From: Phytoactinopolyspora halophila
GTDB taxonomy: Bacteria; Actinomycetota; Actinomycetes; Jiangellales; Jiangellaceae
Assembly: GCF_003287285.1 (NCBI RefSeq)
Contig: NZ_QMIG01000046.1
Span: 1-35,384 of the forward strand
DNA length: 35,384 bases
Direction: 5' to 3'
Made by a program: the position numbers and the translations under genes. This document shows positions 28,197 through 35,384 of the stretch, piece by piece (within the stretch, counting starts at the first letter, position 1; every line of letters begins with the position of its first letter). The notes beneath the pieces are model-generated. The model had not been told where the DNA came from and did no database searches. It worked only from the letters and a program-made list of their open reading frames with translations.

Positions 28197-29951
28197 TCAG
28201 TCGCAGACGGCGCCGTTCGCCGCCGACCCCACCAGCTTCGCGTACTTGGCCAGGACACCTCGGGTGTACTTCGAGGCCCGGGGAGCCCATCCCTGCCGCC
28301 GGCGCGCTAGCTCGTCCTCGTCGACCAGCAGGTCGAGGGTGTGTCCCGGCACGTCGAGCCGGATCGGATCGCCGTCCCGGACGAACGCGATCGGACCGCC
28401 GTCGACGGCTTCCGGAGCGACGTGGCCGATGCACAGCCCCGTGGTACCTCCGGAGAACCGGCCATCGGTGACGAGCAGGACGTCCTTGCCGAGCCCGGCT
28501 CCCTTGATGGCCCCGGTCACGGCCAGCATCTCCCGCATGCCCGGGCCACCCTTGGGACCTTCGTAGCGGATGATGACGACGTCGTCCTTCTGCAGTTCTC
28601 CGGCGGAGACGGCGTCCATGGCGGCCTGTTCGCCGTCGAATACCCGGGCCCGTCCGTCGAAGACTTCGGCGTCGAAACCTGCCGTCTTCACCACGGCGCC
28701 CTCCGGTGCGAGCGAGCCACGCAGGATGGTCAGGCCACCCGTCGTGTGGATCGGGTCGGAGAGCGCGTGGATGATCTTGCCATCGGGGTCCGGCGGTGCG
28801 ATTTCGGCGAGGTTCTCCCGCACGGTCTTGCCGGTGACGGTGAGGCAATCGCCGTGCAGCAGCCCGGCGTCGAGCAGCGCACGCATGACGACGGGCACGC
28901 CGCCGATGCGGTCGACGTCGGTCATCACGTACCGGCCGAACGGTTTGACGTCGGCCAGGTGCGGAACCTTGGCGCCGATCCGGTTGAAGTCGTCGAGTTC
29001 GAGCTTCACATCGGCTTCGTGGGCGATGGCCATCAGGTGCAGCACCGCGTTCGTCGAACCGCCGAGCGCCATGACGACGGCGATGGCGTTCTCGAACGCC
29101 TCCTTGGTGAGGATGTCGCGCGTGGTGATCCCCCGGCGCAGCAGCTCGACGACGGCCATGCCGGAGCGGCGCGCGAAGCCATCACGACGGCGGTCCACCG
29201 CCGGCGGCGCGGCGCTACCGGGCAACGCCATGCCCATCGCCTCTGCCGCGCTGGCCATGGTGTTCGCCGTGAACATACCACCACAAGCACCTTCACCAGG
29301 GCAGATGGCCCGCTCGACCTCGTCGACTTCCTCCCGCGTGATCAACCCGCGTGCGCAGGCCCCGATGGCCTCGAAGGCGTCGATGATGGTCACGTCGCGG
29401 TCGCCGACCCGCCCGGGCAGGATGGAGCCGGCATAGAGGAACACGGCAGCGACGTCGAGGCGTGCGGCGGCCATGAGCATGGCCGGTTCCGACTTGTCAC
29501 AGCCGGCCAGCAGTACCGCGCCGTCGAGGCGTTCCGCACCGAACACCGTCTCGACCGAATCCGCGATCACCTCGCGTGAGACGAGCGAGTAGTGCATGCC
29601 CTCGTGGCCCATGGAAATGCCGTCGGACACGGAGATGGTGCCAAATTCCAGGGGATACCCGCTCGCGGCGTGAACGCCGTCCTTCGCGGCCTTGGCCAGC
29701 CGATCGAGGGAGAGATTGCACGGTGTGATCTCGTTCCACGACGATCCGACCCCGATCTGCGGTTTCTCCCAGTCGTCGTCGGTCATCCCGACGGCACGGA
29801 GCATGCCGCGCGCGGCAGCACGCTCGACGCCATCGGTGACCGTCCGCGAGTGTGGCTTGATATCCGGCTTTCCGGCTCCCGAGCCGGTGGCGTCGGAACT
29901 GGATGGGGTGGAACTGGTGGAACTGCTCGGCGTCGACGATGTACCGGTCAT
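28197..29951 (-). CDS. ilvD: Dihydroxy-acid dehydratase
   Basis: A 584-residue Fe-S enzyme of the IlvD/Edd family, dehydrating dihydroxyisovalerate and dihydroxymethylvalerate, the third step of branched-chain amino acid synthesis. Candidate cluster cysteines are Cys78 ([10 protein letters not shown]), Cys151 ([11 protein letters not shown]) and Cys223 ([12 protein letters not shown]). [20 protein letters not shown] and [19 protein letters not shown] are family signatures. ATG at 29949-29951 chosen; an in-frame TTG lies just before. The first 25 or so residues are a Ser/Thr-rich tail not needed for the fold. It stands about 9 kb from ilvBNC, with no attenuator seen. Confidence 0.95.
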
Positions 29952-30025
29952 GGCACCCAACGCTAGACCCGTCGGCTGGCCGACGAGACGCGAGGTCCGA
30001 AATCCGGACGACTACGCGGCCGCGG

Positions 30026-30349
30026 CTAGCCGAGCCCGACGGTGAGGATCACCACCGAATCCAGGTCCGCGACGAGGTCATGGCGTTGCGGAGGAACGTC
30101 CACGAGCGCACCCTCGGGCACCCGCACCGTACGCTCCGCCGCGCGGATCGTGACTCCTCCGCGCAGGCACAAGATGGTGGCATCGCCCGGGCTCTGGTGC
30201 TTGTCCAGCCGCGTTCCCGCCTTCATCGCGGTCAACGTCTGGCGAAGCCGGGCCCCGCTGTGCAACGTTCGCGATGATCGGCCGTTCGAGGAGTTGCGGG
30301 CCGCTTCCAGCAGGTCCGTGCCGATCGATTCCAAGACCATCTCTGCCAT
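30026..30349 (-). CDS. Small cupin-domain protein
   Basis: A 107-residue single cupin barrel. LTAMKAGTRLDKHQSPGDAT followed by ILCLRGGVTIRA and VRVPEGALVDVPPQRHDLVA gives the two cupin motifs, with His in KHQS and RHD as possible metal ligands. Small cupins bind metals or small molecules, and no precise role can be given. ATG has GGGAGGAT about 7 nt upstream. Confidence 0.8.
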   Translation of the reverse strand: MAEMVLESIGTDLLEAARNSSNGRSSRTLHSGARLRQTLTAMKAGTRLDKHQSPGDATILCLRGGVTIRAAERTVRVPEGALVDVPPQRHDLVADLDSVVILTVGLG

Positions 30350-30386
30350 GACCCCATCCTCCCCGTCTATGCGCCCGCCCGCCAGT

Positions 30387-30485
30387 CGCTCAGGACAAGG
30401 CGATCAGGGCAAGCCGCTCAGGACGCGACGGGCCATGGCAAGGCGGGTCCGGACGAGGCCGCTCATGGCACGTCGGTCAGGGCAG
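30387..30485. repeat. Degenerate 14-15 bp tandem repeat
   Basis: About seven loosely related units such as CGCTCAGGACAAGG (30387-30400), CGATCAGGGCAAGC (30401-30414) and CGCTCAGGACGCGA (30415-30428) run through the gap upstream of the cupin gene and into the last codons of the BNR gene. The later units are less alike. No function is evident. Confidence 0.5.
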
Positions 30486-31565
30486 CAGGGCGGCCCGCAC
30501 GCACAGCACGTCCGGCAGGTGAGCCAGGATCTGCGACCAGCTCTCACCCTCGTCGTTGCTGGCATACACGGTGCCGTCCCGCGTGCCGAGGTAGACACCG
30601 GCCGCGCCGGGCACGTCGTCGACGGTCATCGCGTCGCGGAGCACCGACGCGTAAAAGACTCCGGGCTCGCTCACCCGCGTTCCATTCCACGACGCGCCGC
30701 CGTCGTCGGTGCGCCACACCTGCAACGTCCGCTCTGGCGGCATGCGCTCCATGTCGGCGCTCAGCGGCAGTGCCCACGTCATGCCGGACCGGTGGGGGTT
30801 GCTCACGATCGGGAAACCGAAGTTCGACGGCAGTCCCGTATCGATCGGGGACCAGCTCGCGCCGCCGTCGTCGGAGCGGAACACACCCGGATGGTTCTGC
30901 AGGTACAACACGTCGGGGTCGGCGGCATCGCGCACCACCTTGTGCACGCACTGTCCGTACTCGGGCGGATCGCCGGGGAAGAAGTCCGCCGTGATGCCCG
31001 TGTTCGACGGGTTCCAGGATTGCCCGCCGTCGTCGCTGGCGTACACGCCGCCGGTGGACATGGCCACCAGGAGACGGTCGTTGTCGGGATGCGGCAAGAT
31101 CGTGTGCAGTGCCTGTCCGCCACCACCCGGCTCCCACGTGGGCCGGTGCGGATGATTCCACAGCCCCTCACACAGGCTGAACGTCTCGCCGTGATCGTCG
31201 GAGCGCCACAGGGCCGACGGTTCGGTGCCGGCCCAGACCACGCCGGGGCGGCCCTCGGTGTCGGGACGGATCTGCCAGACATTTTCCACCGAAGCACCGA
31301 GGTTGGACGGGAAGCGGATGCCGCTGCCGTCGGGCGCCTCGTGCCAGGTCGCGCCGAGATCGTCGGACCAGGAGACCGCCGGACCCCAGTGGTCGTAGCT
31401 GGCGCCGGCCAGCACCCTGGTGTGGCCTCCCCGCGTGTCGATGGCGCATGCGGCCACGGATTTCATCAGGAGGTGCGGCCCGTCGACCTCCCACGTACGC
31501 CGGTCCGAGCTGCGCAGTAGCCACAGCCCCTTGCGTGTACCGACAGCCAACAGCACGTCGCTCAT
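30477..31565 (-). CDS. BNR/sortilin-like repeat protein
   Basis: A 362-residue beta-propeller protein with repeated Asp-box units (SWSDDLGATW, LWRSDDHGETF, YASDDGGQSW, FRSDDGGASW, WRTDDGGASW, YASNDEGESW). It starts MSDVLLAVGTRKGLWLLRSS, without a signal peptide, so is probably cytoplasmic. Such proteins are often labelled exo-alpha-sialidase or glycosyl hydrolase without proof. ATG at 31563-31565 is chosen over a GTG at 31574 because of ribosome-site spacing (GGGGAT). A promoter and an operator-like palindrome lie just upstream. Confidence 0.88.
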   Translation of the reverse strand: MSDVLLAVGTRKGLWLLRSSDRRTWEVDGPHLLMKSVAACAIDTRGGHTRVLAGASYDHWGPAVSWSDDLGATWHEAPDGSGIRFPSNLGASVENVWQIRPDTEGRPGVVWAGTEPSALWRSDDHGETFSLCEGLWNHPHRPTWEPGGGGQALHTILPHPDNDRLLVAMSTGGVYASDDGGQSWNPSNTGITADFFPGDPPEYGQCVHKVVRDAADPDVLYLQNHPGVFRSDDGGASWSPIDTGLPSNFGFPIVSNPHRSGMTWALPLSADMERMPPERTLQVWRTDDGGASWNGTRVSEPGVFYASVLRDAMTVDDVPGAAGVYLGTRDGTVYASNDEGESWSQILAHLPDVLCVRAALLP

Positions 31566-31588
31566 AATGATCACATCCCCACCAGCGA

Positions 31589-31607
31589 ATGTTCCGAACA
31601 GGAATAT
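31589..31607. promoter_or_regulatory. Operator-like palindrome over BNR gene promoter
   Basis: ATGTTCC-GAACA-GGAATAT, an inverted repeat matching at 6 of 7 positions per arm. On the minus strand a canonical -10 TAATAT (complement of 31604-31609) overlaps it, with TTCCCA (complement of 31627-31632) 17 nt upstream as -35. The same 7-5-7 sequence recurs at 34654-34672 before the PadR gene, so it is a likely PadR operator repressing the BNR gene. Confidence 0.6.
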
Positions 31608-31779
31608 TACTCACGCGGTCCGATCCTGGGAAGACCCGGTTTCGGACGAACATACGCGCCCGGTCCGACACATCCCGATAGTCCGGAAGGCCCGTCCACG
31701 CCCCACGAACGCCCTACACCATGTAATCTCTCTTCCGAGCGACTGACAGATAGACGTTCAATGGCATGGGAACACGGGC

Positions 31780-32079
31780 ATGTGCGACGACGATATGCGC
31801 CCCAATCCTGCACACGGGGCCATCGAGGAGATATTGCAAGACGCCGAGGCGGTCCAAGCGGACATCGCAGAGGCACTCGACGAGGCGCATCGGATCATGA
31901 ACGATGGCGAGGCGTGGACCGGCCCCACGACGGCCCAGGCGTTTCTGGACGAGCTGGAGGAGCGCAAGGGGAACATGCCGCGACTCGCCGAGCGTCTCGT
32001 GGAAGACATTCGGGACGCGCTGAACAACACTCCTGAAGAAGTCCCCAGCACGACATCGGGCGGAAGCATCCCGGTATGA
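31780..32079 (+). CDS. WXG100-like small secreted-type protein
   Basis: A 99-residue, mostly helical acidic protein with a central WTG turn (NDGEAWTGPTTAQAFLDELE) between two long helices, the shape of WXG100/ESX substrates. No signal peptide is present, as expected for type VII export. ATG at 31780 has a weak ribosome site. Its TGA overlaps the ATG at 32076 of the next frame (ATGA). No ESX secretion machinery is visible in the window, so export is inferred from fold only. Confidence 0.65.
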   Translation: MCDDDMRPNPAHGAIEEILQDAEAVQADIAEALDEAHRIMNDGEAWTGPTTAQAFLDELEERKGNMPRLAERLVEDIRDALNNTPEEVPSTTSGGSIPV

Positions 32080-32198
32080 GCGAATACTCCAGCATCAGCG
32101 TCGAAGGTATGGACGACCTCGTCTCAGCTACCCGGTCCGCCGGCCGCACGCTCGGGGAGGACCTGGACAGCTTGCGGAGTCGCATGCGGACGGTGGGA
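32076..32198 (+). pseudogene. N-terminal segment of the large protein, in another frame
   Basis: From ATG 32076 (coupled to the preceding stop by ATGA) the frame reads MSEYSSISVEGMDDLVSATR and continues as a helical segment to MRTVG at about 32198; beyond that this frame becomes an Arg-rich shadow of the next gene, ending only at 32675. The sense then passes to the +1 frame at GTG 32200 (VSMEAMNDIDQM). The joined product would be about 650 residues with a WXG-like helical N terminus. A one-base insertion or an assembly error near 32190-32200 is the simplest explanation; programmed frameshifting or two separate starts cannot be excluded. Confidence 0.6.
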
Positions 32199-32199
32199 C

Positions 32200-34029
32200 G
32201 TGAGCATGGAGGCCATGAACGACATCGACCAGATGGCCGAGTGGGTCGACGATCAGCTCGGCGGTCTGGAGGTGCGCCGGAACATGGCCGTTGGCCTCAC
32301 CGGGGACCAGCCGACCACCACGATGGTTCAGATCGAGGAACCGCCGCCCTTCGATTCACCCGAGGAAGCCGAACAGCACGGCCGCGAGCTCGCCCAGCAG
32401 CTAGAGGAAGACGGGGCGATCGACGCCGACAGGTTCGACCAGCTCATGGAGGATTTCGGGCCATACGTCAACAACCCCGACGTGATGGCGGGTTTCTACA
32501 TGGAACTCGATCCCCAAGTGACCGAGATGTTGCCGTCCCTGCTCCACCAGAGCGGAGCAGACAACGCCGAGCAATATCTCGAGCAATTCAGCACTGGCCT
32601 CGGCACCGCGCTCAGCACCACGGACAACACGAGCTCCACCTCGGATTACTACAGCGAACTCTCGGACGTGCGTGAACACTTCCGCCAACCTGTCGACAGT
32701 CCAGGTATGGCCTGGGACCGGCTGGCGATGCTGCAACACGGAGACTTCCCCGCCCGTTTCGTGGCCGACGTCGCCCGGAACGGCGTCCTGGACCAACTGG
32801 AAGGCGACGAGTGGGATCAGATCGACTACCGAGGTTCCATGACCCAGAAGCTGGGACTCTCCGGCGACACGCTGGCGCTGGCCTTCGGAGCCCTCGGCAA
32901 CAATCCGTCCGCGGCGCGCATCGCCCTGGACGAGAAGGCGGACATATCGCTCGAGGAATACACGAACCGGGTCTACGGCATGGAGGGAAGTCGCGGCACC
33001 GGTGACGACATCGTCGCCGGCTACGGGCAGGCGCTCGCAGCCGGATCCGGAGCTCTCGAAGACCCGCCGGACAAGGGTCACCACGCCTCCAACTTCGCGT
33101 TCGAGGTCATCCAGGTGCTCGGCCAGCACGAAGACACCCCGTGGGGAATGCGCGATCCCATGGGACAGATCGGCGCCGCATACGCGGAAGAGCTGCTCAT
33201 CGGTTCCTATTCCCACGAGCACGCCAACCGCGAATCGTCGATGGACATCCCCGAAGATTTCGAACTGCCACCCGGGACCGACCCGGCATTCCTCTTGAAC
33301 CCGGAAGACGTCTACCGGTTCCTGCACGGATTCGCCCACGACGATACGCACTCGCAGGACTTCGACCGCGCGGTCGAGAATCTGTACGAGACCCTTCCCA
33401 ACCAGGCCATCGAGGCCGATCTCGAAACCACGCAGAACGGGGAGCGAGACCCGCAGAACCTCGAGGCCGTCATGCGGATGTTCGGCACACTGGGAGGGCT
33501 GCAACATCAAGCACAAGTCGAGGTCAGGGGCAGCCAGTTCGACGAGGAAGAAGCCCGCAGAAAGCGATTCGCGCAGGTGCGGAACTTCCTCCTGGGCGAA
33601 GCGGCCGGCACAACCCGCGTCACGGGTGCCATGTGGAAGGCCATGCAGCTCGTAGCACCCAATGCCATCGACGACGCGCTCGGCAGCAACCCCGATCCGC
33701 GAGAGGCCCTGGCCGACAAAGATCTGCGGGTGGGCGTGCTGGAACGCTACACTCTCGCCCAGACCATGGCCGATGCCGGATATCCGACGAGCGAGGAGGC
33801 GCCGGCCGACCTGTTCGATCGTGATCCGGAGAAGATTCTCGATGATCCCGAGTACGCGGCACAGGTCATGGAAGATCTCAACGAGTGGACCGAGAACAAC
33901 TCCGAAGGCGATCCCGAGGACCACACGTTCCCGCTCCAAGACAAGTACAACTCAGCGTGGGACGCGATCGGGAACGGTCGTGGAGACGTCTCGGATCAGA
34001 TCGCGGACCGCGTGGACTGGCAGGAGTAG
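32200..34029 (+). CDS. Large acidic protein of a WXG-type locus, unknown
   Basis: A 609-residue acidic, mainly helical protein without signal peptide or membrane helix. It begins EAMNDIDQMAEWVDDQLGGL, reminiscent of the second helix of WXG-type N-terminal domains. Later stretches include WDRLAMLQHGDFPARFVADV, LALAFGALGNNPSAARIAL, NPEDVYRFLHGFAHDD and KYNSAWDAIGNGRGDV. It resembles actinobacterial proteins of the DUF6571 kind, but I hold this loosely. GTG 32200 or ATG 32206 (GGTGGGA about 7 nt upstream) could start it independently. The true N terminus probably lies at 32076 in another frame. Confidence 0.75.
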   Translation: MSMEAMNDIDQMAEWVDDQLGGLEVRRNMAVGLTGDQPTTTMVQIEEPPPFDSPEEAEQHGRELAQQLEEDGAIDADRFDQLMEDFGPYVNNPDVMAGFYMELDPQVTEMLPSLLHQSGADNAEQYLEQFSTGLGTALSTTDNTSSTSDYYSELSDVREHFRQPVDSPGMAWDRLAMLQHGDFPARFVADVARNGVLDQLEGDEWDQIDYRGSMTQKLGLSGDTLALAFGALGNNPSAARIALDEKADISLEEYTNRVYGMEGSRGTGDDIVAGYGQALAAGSGALEDPPDKGHHASNFAFEVIQVLGQHEDTPWGMRDPMGQIGAAYAEELLIGSYSHEHANRESSMDIPEDFELPPGTDPAFLLNPEDVYRFLHGFAHDDTHSQDFDRAVENLYETLPNQAIEADLETTQNGERDPQNLEAVMRMFGTLGGLQHQAQVEVRGSQFDEEEARRKRFAQVRNFLLGEAAGTTRVTGAMWKAMQLVAPNAIDDALGSNPDPREALADKDLRVGVLERYTLAQTMADAGYPTSEEAPADLFDRDPEKILDDPEYAAQVMEDLNEWTENNSEGDPEDHTFPLQDKYNSAWDAIGNGRGDVSDQIADRVDWQE

Positions 34030-34033
34030 GGGC

Positions 34034-34594
34034 GTGCGAATACGATCTAGCCACGGCCGGTGGCTCCTGGCCGTCGTCGCCGCGTCGGCCCTCCTGGCCA
34101 GCTGCACCAGCGAGTCTGACGTCGACATGGACGAACTCGGCCAGCAGCTCAACGAGGACGGCCAAACCATCGTCGACGAATTCGACACCAACGAACCCCG
34201 CGGCGGACACATCACGTCCACCAGCCCTGGCGCCGACGCCTCCACCGACGAGGAATGCGGCGACGGCGGCGTCCAGCGCCGCTGGACCCACGAATTCTCA
34301 TTCGCCTGGCCCGGAGACCCCACAAACGACGACCACGTCAACGACTCTTTCAACGGCGCATTGGACTTCCTCTCATCCGTCTTGAACCCGCTCGGGTATT
34401 CGGCCGAGCGATCAGACATGGGCCAAGGCGCCAAGCCCCGGACAGCCGTGTACGTGCGCACCGCTACCGACGAGGAGATCGAGCTGGAATTCCGCGTCGA
34501 CTTCGAACTCGCCGCCAACCAGGCCGACGACGAGACCATCACAGCCGACTTCACCCTCACCGGCACCACCGAATGCGTAGGCGCCGACGGCTGA
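34034..34594 (+). CDS. Lipoprotein partner of the WXG-type locus
   Basis: A 186-residue protein starting with GTG 34034 (GGAG 7 nt upstream), with a basic start, a hydrophobic core and lipobox LLASC, so anchored outside the membrane. The mature part is acidic, with EECGDGGVQRRWTHEFSFAW, YVRTATDEEIELEFRVDFEL and a final ECVGADG; two Cys may pair. The gene starts 4 bases after the large-protein stop, so they are surely co-transcribed. An immunity or assembly role beside a WXG-type protein is possible but unproven. Confidence 0.8.
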   Translation: MRIRSSHGRWLLAVVAASALLASCTSESDVDMDELGQQLNEDGQTIVDEFDTNEPRGGHITSTSPGADASTDEECGDGGVQRRWTHEFSFAWPGDPTNDDHVNDSFNGALDFLSSVLNPLGYSAERSDMGQGAKPRTAVYVRTATDEEIELEFRVDFELAANQADDETITADFTLTGTTECVGADG

Positions 34595-34653
34595 CGGCGC
34601 ACCGGACGCGCCGCTGAAGGATCGTGTTCGGCCGGCCGGTTCGGCACCCACTC

Positions 34654-34672
34654 ATGTTCCTGATAGGAATAT
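34654..34672. promoter_or_regulatory. Operator-like palindrome upstream of padR
   Basis: ATGTTCC-TGATA-GGAATAT, with the same arms as the site at 31589-31607 and only the spacer changed. It lies 58-76 bases upstream of the PadR start, where an autoregulatory operator is expected. PadR proteins commonly bind ATGT-N8-ACAT-like repeats; this site is related but longer. Confidence 0.6.
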
Positions 34673-34729
34673 GAGACCGCCCGATCTCGGTACGAAGACG
34701 TACAGGTCGACTCCGTCGGAGAGGAAACG

Positions 34730-35320
34730 GTGCCGCGCGAATCGTCCGAATTCCAAGACCTCCCACCCACGAGCTACGCCTTGCTCGGCCTGCTCTCGTT
34801 CGGGCCCGAGCTGACCGGGTACGAGCTGAAACAGTGGGCCGACTCGACGCTGGGTTTCTACTGGGTGGCGCCTGCCATGAGTCAGGTCTACACGGAACTC
34901 ACTCGGCTGGATCGGCTCGGGCTCGTCGAGTCCCGCGAGGATTCTCGCGCCGGGCGCCGTCCGGCCCGCCGTTACAAGATCAGCACCGCGGGCCTCACCG
35001 AGCTGCGCCGCTGGCTCACCGAAACACCGATCGAGTTCCCGGTGCTCAAACACCCGGCCGCGCTACGCCTGCTGCTCGGGCATCTGGTCGATGTGGATGT
35101 CACCCGGCAGATGCTCGACGGCTATCTCCGCCAGCTCGACGAGCGCCGCGCCGCGCTGCAGCAGGTGCGGGACAATCTCGGTGCCGACGCCCAGTACCGC
35201 TTCCCCGCCGAGGTGGCCGAGTGGGGCCTGGCCTACTACGACTTCGAGGCGCGGACCGCGGCGGAGATCGCCAGCAGGCTCGCCGATGCCGACCCACCCA
35301 CCGCTGATCATGAACAGTAG
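34730..35320 (+). CDS. PadR-family transcriptional regulator
   Basis: A 196-residue regulator. The winged helix N-terminal domain has TSYALLGLLSFGPELTGYEL, then MSQVYTELTRLDRLGLVESR and GRRPARRYKISTAGLTELRR as recognition helix and wing. The C-terminal helical domain (about residues 100-180) forms the PadR dimer interface, including LDGYLRQLDERRAALQQV. GTG 34730 has GGAGAGGAAA upstream. The last residues (PTADHEQ) and TAG come from repeat family A. Likely binds the palindrome at 34654 and the matching site at 31589. Confidence 0.9.
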   Translation: MPRESSEFQDLPPTSYALLGLLSFGPELTGYELKQWADSTLGFYWVAPAMSQVYTELTRLDRLGLVESREDSRAGRRPARRYKISTAGLTELRRWLTETPIEFPVLKHPAALRLLLGHLVDVDVTRQMLDGYLRQLDERRAALQQVRDNLGADAQYRFPAEVAEWGLAYYDFEARTAAEIASRLADADPPTADHEQ

Positions 35321-35373
35321 TCGACCACATGGCGGGCTCAAGCGGTGCTTGCAACGTTCATGCTTAGTGGTGG
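35298..35373. repeat. Family A repeat, diverged copy 4
   Basis: CCACCGCTGATCATGAAC (35298-35315) is inverted imperfectly (15 of 18) at 35356-35373 around a different inner sequence. Its left arm encodes the last codons of PadR and the TAG at 35318-35320. It lies at the right edge of the window. Confidence 0.7.
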
Positions 35374-35384
35374 AGGTGGGCGTT

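What the first reader, a model, noticed from the sequence alone, without database searches (positions are those of the whole stretch)
31589..34672. Same 19-bp operator palindrome before the BNR gene and before padR
ATGTTCC-N5-GGAATAT occurs at 31589-31607, overlapping a good -10 (TAATAT) of the BNR gene, and at 34654-34672 upstream of padR. Identical arms with different spacers are hard to explain by chance in 66% GC DNA. It predicts that PadR represses itself and the BNR protein, and perhaps brackets the WXG-type locus lying between.
Basis: partly seen in the sequence, partly recalled or inferred. Interest (0 to 1): 0.6.

Follow-up and report, generated by a model that had tools for sequence, protein, structure and literature searches.

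The report
PadR repressor operator with export regulon
Two matching DNA palindromes in this actinobacterium very probably are the docking sites of a PadR-type regulator that controls itself and a neighbouring propeller-shaped protein, a pairing conserved in many related bacteria where the same palindrome also sits in front of drug-export pump genes.

Summary
ATGTTCC-N5-GGAATAT lies at 31589-31607 and 34654-34672, and these are the only matches with at most 1 mismatch to ATRTTCC-N5-GGAAYAT in the 5.04 Mb genome (0.01 exact sites expected). In related actinobacteria the same palindrome sits directly upstream of padR orthologues: 68 of 74 distinct upstream regions, against 83 of 3700 shuffles. 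BNR is the divergent neighbour in those 68. The 6 without a site form one clade and lack BNR. BNR genes in genomes without a close PadR orthologue have a site in 1 of 28. So the palindrome is very probably the operator of this PadR, which controls itself and BNR. In relatives the regulon is wider: 13 loci have a DrrA-type ABC ATPase gene between padR and BNR, and 19 of 36 further exact sites examined lie 11-63 bp before such a gene. The WXG-like cassette between the two sites looks inserted: the nearest relative has both operators 107 bp apart without it. PadR autoregulation and PadR control of ABC exporters are known; this operator and the BNR link appear new. No binding data exist.

The parts
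31589..31607 (.). Operator 1, ATGTTCC-GAACA-GGAATAT, 23 bp upstream of the likely BNR start codon, overlapping a -10-like TAATAT
   Evidence: equivalent to the BNR-proximal operator of L011
34654..34672 (.). Operator 2, ATGTTCC-TGATA-GGAATAT, 57 bp upstream of padR
   Evidence: equivalent to the padR-proximal operator of L011
34730..35320 (+). padR, 196 aa; winged-helix domain plus long C-terminal helices (PadR-s1-like build)
   Evidence: PF03551 33 bits over cut-off 27; profile hits PadR 5x11, AphA 1yg2, VanR 5z7b (name VanR); model pLDDT 82 matches Rv1176c and other PadR folds
30477..31565 (-). BNR gene, Asp-box propeller-type protein of unknown function; start ATG 31565 preferred over GTG 31574
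   Evidence: PF02012 and PF15902 over cut-off; model pLDDT 84 matches 3b7f, Reut_B4987, E 4.9e-31, 37% identity
31604..31609 (-). -10-like TAATAT of BNR, four of six bases inside operator 1
   Evidence: read from sequence; not listed by the promoter scan
31780..34594 (+). WXG-like cassette (99, 609 and 186 aa) lying between the two operators; probably a lineage-specific insertion, not a conserved regulon member
   Evidence: no Pfam/NCBIfam match for the three; no homologue of them in the 16.5 kb L011; 609-aa homologues elsewhere in relatives

Best explanation
The two palindromes are operators of the PadR protein encoded at 34730-35320. A PadR dimer sits on ATRTTCC-N5-GGAAYAT with one recognition helix in each arm. 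At site 1 it blocks the BNR promoter and at site 2 its own promoter. A small molecule, unknown here, releases it (inferred from the family), so BNR and padR rise together. In related bacteria the same regulator also holds down DrrAB-type ABC exporters, so the ancestral response is probably to a toxic compound that is pumped out. In this genome only padR and BNR carry the operator, and a WXG-like cassette has been inserted between the two. Shown by sequence: site, rarity, conservation, co-occurrence, neighbour genes. Inferred: binding, repression, ligand, history.
For: Only two sites genome-wide. 10 of 10 named padR relatives have a site at 3 mismatches or fewer, 40-174 bp before the first aligned codon. 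68 of 74 distinct upstreams have it, against 2.2% of shuffles. The divergent neighbour is BNR in those 68: 54 directly, 13 with an exporter ATPase gene between, 1 (window) with the cassette between. BNR loci from genomes without a close PadR orthologue: 1 of 28 has a site. In 245 genomes of the Nocardioidaceae-like family, 59 of 67 padR-positive and 12 of 178 padR-negative genomes hold an exact 17-mer (in 5 of the 59 it is not next to padR). 18 of 27 extra sites in padR-positive genomes lie just before an ABC ATPase gene; of six ATPases tested, all six pass the DrrA subfamily cut-off. PadR recognition helix strongly conserved.
Against: No binding or expression data. Six orthologues lack the site at their own promoter; they are one clade (support 89/48, weak), so they count as one event, and three of their genomes still carry the palindrome before the exporter. 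1 of 28 padR-less BNR genes keeps a site (G012, L054). The window genome's own exporter orthologue (83%) has no site. Relatedness inflates the counts: the orthologues share descent and some intergenic similarity is expected. The BNR promoter is weak by consensus, and the only listed promoter-like site near site 1 points the other way. A PadR with this operator could be an activator, as AphA is (recalled).
Confidence: 0.86

Rival explanations
1. The palindrome is the operator of a different regulator that controls both padR and BNR, PadR being only a target.
For: Operator conservation alone does not name the binder; G012 keeps a BNR site without a padR orthologue found (genome 93% complete), and 12 of 178 padR-negative genomes have an exact 17-mer somewhere.
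Against: In the sampled family the exact motif is about 13 times more frequent in padR-positive genomes (59 of 67 against 12 of 178). Of the 13 sites in padR-negative genomes 9 were read: 1 is before an ABC ATPase (G403), the rest in mixed contexts. The most constant companion of the site is padR itself.
Confidence: 0.06
2. The operators regulate the WXG-like cassette too, from both ends, as a purposeful bracket.
For: 172 bp lie between operator 1 and the cassette start (31780), 59 bp between its end (34594) and operator 2. The promoter scan lists one plus-strand promoter-like site at 31540-31568 (9 of 12), from which a rightward transcript would run through operator 1.
Against: Two operators without cassette in L011; the 19 cassette-homologue loci fetched outside this genome hold no exact operator. 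The listed plus-strand site lies inside the 5' end of BNR and is a consensus match only. Odds raised from 0.05 to 0.08 on rechecking.
Confidence: 0.08
3. Chance pair, or a remnant repeat carried by the inserted cassette.
For: Two copies at either end of an inserted segment resemble flanking repeats.
Against: Both operators exist in L011 without the cassette; spacers differ; 0.01 expected in the genome; conservation.
Confidence: 0.01
4. PadR binds the sites but activates BNR.
For: PadR-family AphA is an activator (recalled; PDB name 'gene activator AphA').
Against: Site 1 covers the -10-like box and, by position, the start of transcription, typical of repression (sequence reading); LmrR represses and autoregulates and bcPadR1 is thought to autoregulate (passages of PMC4534193 and PMC3506622).
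Confidence: 0.08

Closest known systems
LmrR / LmrCD of Lactococcus lactis (PMC4534193, passages read; PMC3506622 passages)
   Same: PadR-family repressor that binds its own promoter and that of an ABC multidrug exporter through an inverted repeat; drugs release it
   Different: LmrR is a small PadR-s2-type protein; canonical ATGT/ACAT with 8-10 bp between. Here a PadR-s1-size protein, outer ATRT/AYAT with 11 bp between in the window and a near-invariant TTCC/GGAA core; the main partner is a BNR protein
bcPadR2 of Bacillus cereus (BCE3449; PMC3506622, passages read)
   Same: gene near an ABC pump similar to DrrAB; operator-like CTGT-N8-ATAT noted by the authors
   Different: PadR-s2, no BNR gene in the passages read, different spacing
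cdPadR1 of Clostridium difficile (PMC5050560, passages read)
   Same: inverted repeat with an 11-12 bp AT-rich middle in its own promoter
   Different: TACT/AGTA arms, about 200 predicted sites against two here
Bacillus subtilis PadR (5x11) and Rv1176c (8ioi)
   Same: nearest solved relatives by profile and by fold
   Different: about 20% identity in the fold alignment (Foldseek); targets of this PadR group differ as far as inferred here
Reut_B4987 (3b7f), putative glycosyl hydrolase with BNR repeats
   Same: same fold over full length as the BNR protein, 37% identity
   Different: 'putative' by its title; function of neither is known from the calls

Membership tests
PadR transcriptional regulators (PF03551) | PadR winged-helix domain above Pfam cut-off | tested here: met
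   33 bits, cut-off 27
PadR transcriptional regulators (PF03551) | Fold: winged helix plus C-terminal dimerisation helices | tested here: met
   model pLDDT 82, best PDB matches are PadR proteins; dimerisation itself not modelled
PadR transcriptional regulators (PF03551) | Binds an inverted repeat in its own promoter | tested here: inconclusive
   repeat present and conserved; binding not testable here
PadR-s1 subfamily | Larger C-terminal domain (Vir_act_alpha_C) | tested here: inconclusive
   PF10400 20.8 bits, cut-off 22.4; long helices 122-150 and 154-186 in the model
Canonical PadR operator ATGT-N8/10-ACAT | Arm sequence and 8-10 bp spacing | tested here: not met
   ATRT-N11-AYAT in the window; outer bases vary, core TTCC-N5-GGAA invariant in 68 sites but for one base in one (sites selected at <=3 mismatches)
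LmrR-type drug-responsive system | Same regulator controls itself and an ABC exporter | tested here: inconclusive
   operator placement fits in relatives; not so in the window genome, whose nearest exporter lacks the site
LmrR-type drug-responsive system | Ligand-induced release | not testable with these tools
   -
BNR / Asp-box repeat proteins (PF02012) | Asp-box repeats above cut-off | tested here: met
   41.2 bits, cut-off 27
F510_1955 family glycosylhydrolase (NF045728) | Equivalog score | tested here: not met
   53.5 bits, cut-off 175

The most novel reading that the evidence does not exclude
A previously undescribed actinobacterial stress regulon in which one PadR, through a TTCC-N5-GGAA operator, couples a BNR propeller-type protein (no signal peptide seen by reading) to DrrAB-type drug exporters. 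The BNR protein is an accessory part of the export or drug response (for example a chaperone for, or sensor of, the exported compound): in 13 loci its gene lies downstream of the exporter ATPase gene on the same strand, and in one clade of six genomes it is missing together with the operator at padR. The operator appears to have been recruited more than once, in front of different exporters.
Probability: 0.4. Interest if true: 0.65.

Novelty: new member of a known kind. Interest (0 to 1): 0.48.

Why it matters
It gives a testable operator and regulon for an uncharacterised PadR group found in Jiangellaceae, Nocardioidaceae and a Microlunatus relative. It also offers a functional lead, co-regulation with drug exporters, for a BNR protein family that is common in these bacteria (188 of 245 genomes) and has a solved structure but no role named in the calls made here. 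It also shows a divergent promoter region split by a cassette with one operator left on each side.

Tried and rejected
Considered and rejected: (a) chance pair; (b) repeats belonging to the cassette (both operators exist without it); (c) a wider regulon in this genome: of the 13 two-mismatch places eight were read, and by reading none is beside an exporter start or a common gene class, and the DrrA orthologue (83%) has a best match of 4 mismatches; (d) a structured RNA in the region: no Rfam match at gathering threshold in 29800-35384. With up to 1 mismatch the 19-mer search of the 22 own-family genomes was not specific (12 of 22 genomes matched, reversed control 4 of 22), so it was not used as evidence on its own. 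One distant homologue (L209, 40% identity, no BNR in its 8 kb) has a 2-mismatch site at -89; the other nine distant loci have none at 3 or fewer. Literature: nine searches of an open-licence library; none listed a paper on a PadR with this operator or on a PadR/BNR pair, judged from titles and abstract starts (one search listed nothing), with passages read of three papers only (PMC3506622, PMC5050560, PMC4534193). A few listed papers hold both words of a pair (for example PMC2774856; PMC7674204) and were not opened. Subscription journals are not held.

Rows dropped: four of 78 padR loci as duplicates of another upstream region (L147, L176, L180, L186); L012 from alignment A3 because its range read a stop. 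The 28 padR-less BNR loci are the 30 best-scoring of 40 genomes with a match minus the window and G014; L077 has only 131 bp upstream. Of 40 non-padR-adjacent exact 17-mers (94 in all; split by my own reading of the listings, sum checked), 36 were fetched; 4 were not listed by the tool (one in G402, two in G432, one in G563). Gene-class names without a Pfam or NCBIfam call are by reading of the sequence.
Full report
OBSERVATION. ATGTTCC-N5-GGAATAT occurs at 31589-31607 and 34654-34672 with no mismatch, and nowhere else in the window with up to 3. In the whole 5,039,258-base assembly (window = contig C38) the symmetrised pattern ATRTTCC-N5-GGAAYAT has two exact places, none at 1 mismatch and 13 at 2; the reversed-pattern control has 3 at up to 2. 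From the window's base composition (66% GC) one expects 0.01 exact and 11.7 at up to 2 mismatches in the genome, so the 13 weak places are background and the two exact places, 3,065 bp apart, are not chance. 23 bp lie between site 1 and the likely BNR start (ATG 31565; two homologues read begin at this Met), and 57 bp between site 2 and padR. The TAATAT on the minus strand overlapping site 1 is weak and was not listed by the promoter scan. That scan listed one promoter-like site near site 1, on the plus strand at 31540-31568 inside the start of BNR, and none near site 2.

GENES. padR encodes a 196-aa PadR-family protein whose nearest solved relatives by profile or fold are B. subtilis PadR, AphA, VanR and Rv1176c. 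The BNR gene encodes an Asp-box protein; its model (pLDDT 84) matches 3b7f over its whole length (37% identity, TM 0.90). Below BNR lie a small cupin-like gene (by reading; no Pfam match) and an IlvD-like gene (by reading; about 90% identical in L011).

CONSERVATION. A scan of named genomes found 10 relatives of this PadR; all 10 carry the palindrome at 3 mismatches or fewer, 40-174 bp before the first aligned codon. A search of 245 genomes of the family of G046 (members that also appear under names here are Nocardioidaceae) gave 67 with a close PadR. I fetched all 67. Pooling window, 10 named loci and 67 unnamed gave 78 loci, 74 with distinct upstream regions. 68 of 74 have a site at 3 mismatches or fewer (2 at 0, 16 at 1, 46 at 2, 4 at 3) between 450 bp upstream and 40 bp inside; 83 of 3,700 dinucleotide shuffles do. 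In the 68 sites, themselves chosen at 3 mismatches or fewer, GGAA is invariant and TTCC departs at its first T in one. The spacer is not free (mostly T/G-A-A/T-T/C-A); both spacers of the window (GAACA, TGATA) fit nearly. A TASNCT-like -10 follows directly in many.

ASSOCIATION WITH BNR. In all 68 loci with a site a BNR orthologue is divergent from padR: 54 directly, 13 at about 2 kb with an ABC ATPase gene beside the operator (13 of 13), and the window at 3.2 kb. The 6 loci without a site have no BNR neighbour, and none of these six genomes is among the 188 BNR-positive genomes (E <= 1e-60). They form one clade (support 89/48, weak), so this is one co-loss, not six. Nine more distant homologues form an outgroup in that midpoint-rooted tree; of the ten distant loci scanned, one (L209) has a 2-mismatch site. 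Conversely, BNR genes from 28 genomes without a close PadR orthologue have a site in 1 case (L054 of G012, 308 bp upstream; TTGACG-17-CATATT beside it by reading). In the 245 genomes an exact 17-mer is present in 59 of 67 padR-positive and 12 of 178 padR-negative genomes (reversed control: 4 of 245 genomes).

EXPORTERS. 94 exact 17-mers occur in 71 of 245 genomes; by my tally 54 adjoin padR and 40 do not. I fetched 36 of the 40. 19 of the 36 lie 11-63 bp before the start of an ABC ATPase gene. Six ATPases were tested, four of these (L219, L223, L224, L228) and those of L203 and L015: all six pass the TIGR01188 DrrA cut-off. The L015 permease is ABC2_membrane, and there the order is ATPase, permease, BNR. 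In padR-positive genomes the ATPase count is 18 of 27; of the other nine, one adjoins an MMPL gene, one an MFS gene, three glyoxalase/bleomycin-resistance-fold genes and one an MDMPI_N gene, and three (L232, L278, L290) have no clear partner. In padR-negative genomes it is 1 of 9 read. P. alkaliphila has a further near-exact site 231 bp before a DrrA-type gene. In three genomes of the BNR-less clade the palindrome is kept before the exporter with a changed spacer. In the window genome the exporter orthologue (83%) has no site, so the local regulon seen is padR and BNR only.

THE CASSETTE. In P. alkaliphila (L011), the nearest relative, two operators 107 bp apart lie in one short intergenic region between BNR and padR. 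In the window the same two lie at either side of a three-gene cassette. Homologues of its 609-aa protein occur in 20 of 99 genomes counting the window's own, for example 16 kb from padR in G014, and none of the 19 outside loci fetched has an exact operator. The simplest history is insertion between two pre-existing operators. Control of the cassette by PadR is not excluded: a plus-strand promoter-like match lies just left of operator 1.

MECHANISM. A PadR dimer on the 19-mer would cover the BNR -10-like box at site 1. The predicted recognition helix (residues 50-62) has 7 of 13 residues invariant in the ten aligned orthologues, in keeping with the constant operator core. By analogy with LmrR (PMC4534193, passages) a small molecule would lift repression. 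Binding, repression and ligand are inferred.

COMPARISON AND NOVELTY. The canonical PadR operator is ATGT-N8/10-ACAT (PMC3506622 and PMC5050560, passages); cdPadR1 uses TACT-N11/12-AGTA. Here the outer bases are ATRT-N11-AYAT in the window but vary elsewhere, and the core is TTCC-N5-GGAA. PadR beside a DrrAB-like pump is known (bcPadR2). New, as far as nine searches of an open-licence library show (listings; three papers in passages), are this operator, the BNR partner and the multi-exporter regulon.

Noticed in passing
window 31780-34594: WXG-like three-gene cassette (99 aa with a W-x-G, 609 aa, 186 aa lipoprotein-like by reading) without any Pfam or NCBIfam match for the three genes; 609-aa homologues are frequent in the family (20 of 99 genomes searched).
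   Followed up: partly
L054 1193-1211 (= L213 3577): G012 keeps a near-perfect operator over a good-looking promoter upstream of BNR, but no orthologue of this PadR was found in that 93%-complete genome.
   Followed up: partly
L234, L277, L281 near 3001: In three BNR-less genomes the palindrome with a GAGAT/ATCTC spacer adjoins a glyoxalase/bleomycin-resistance-fold gene.
   Followed up: partly
L221 3001 and L276 3001: Exact operators beside an MMPL-family and an MFS transporter gene, hinting at other exporters in the regulon.
   Followed up: partly
window 31540-31568: Plus-strand promoter-like site (9 of 12) just left of operator 1, inside the 5' end of BNR, pointing towards the cassette.
   Followed up: no
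L287 3001 and L288 1682: Exact 17-mer inside what reads as a methylmalonyl-CoA mutase gene in two padR-negative genomes; presumably a chance match in conserved coding sequence.
   Followed up: no
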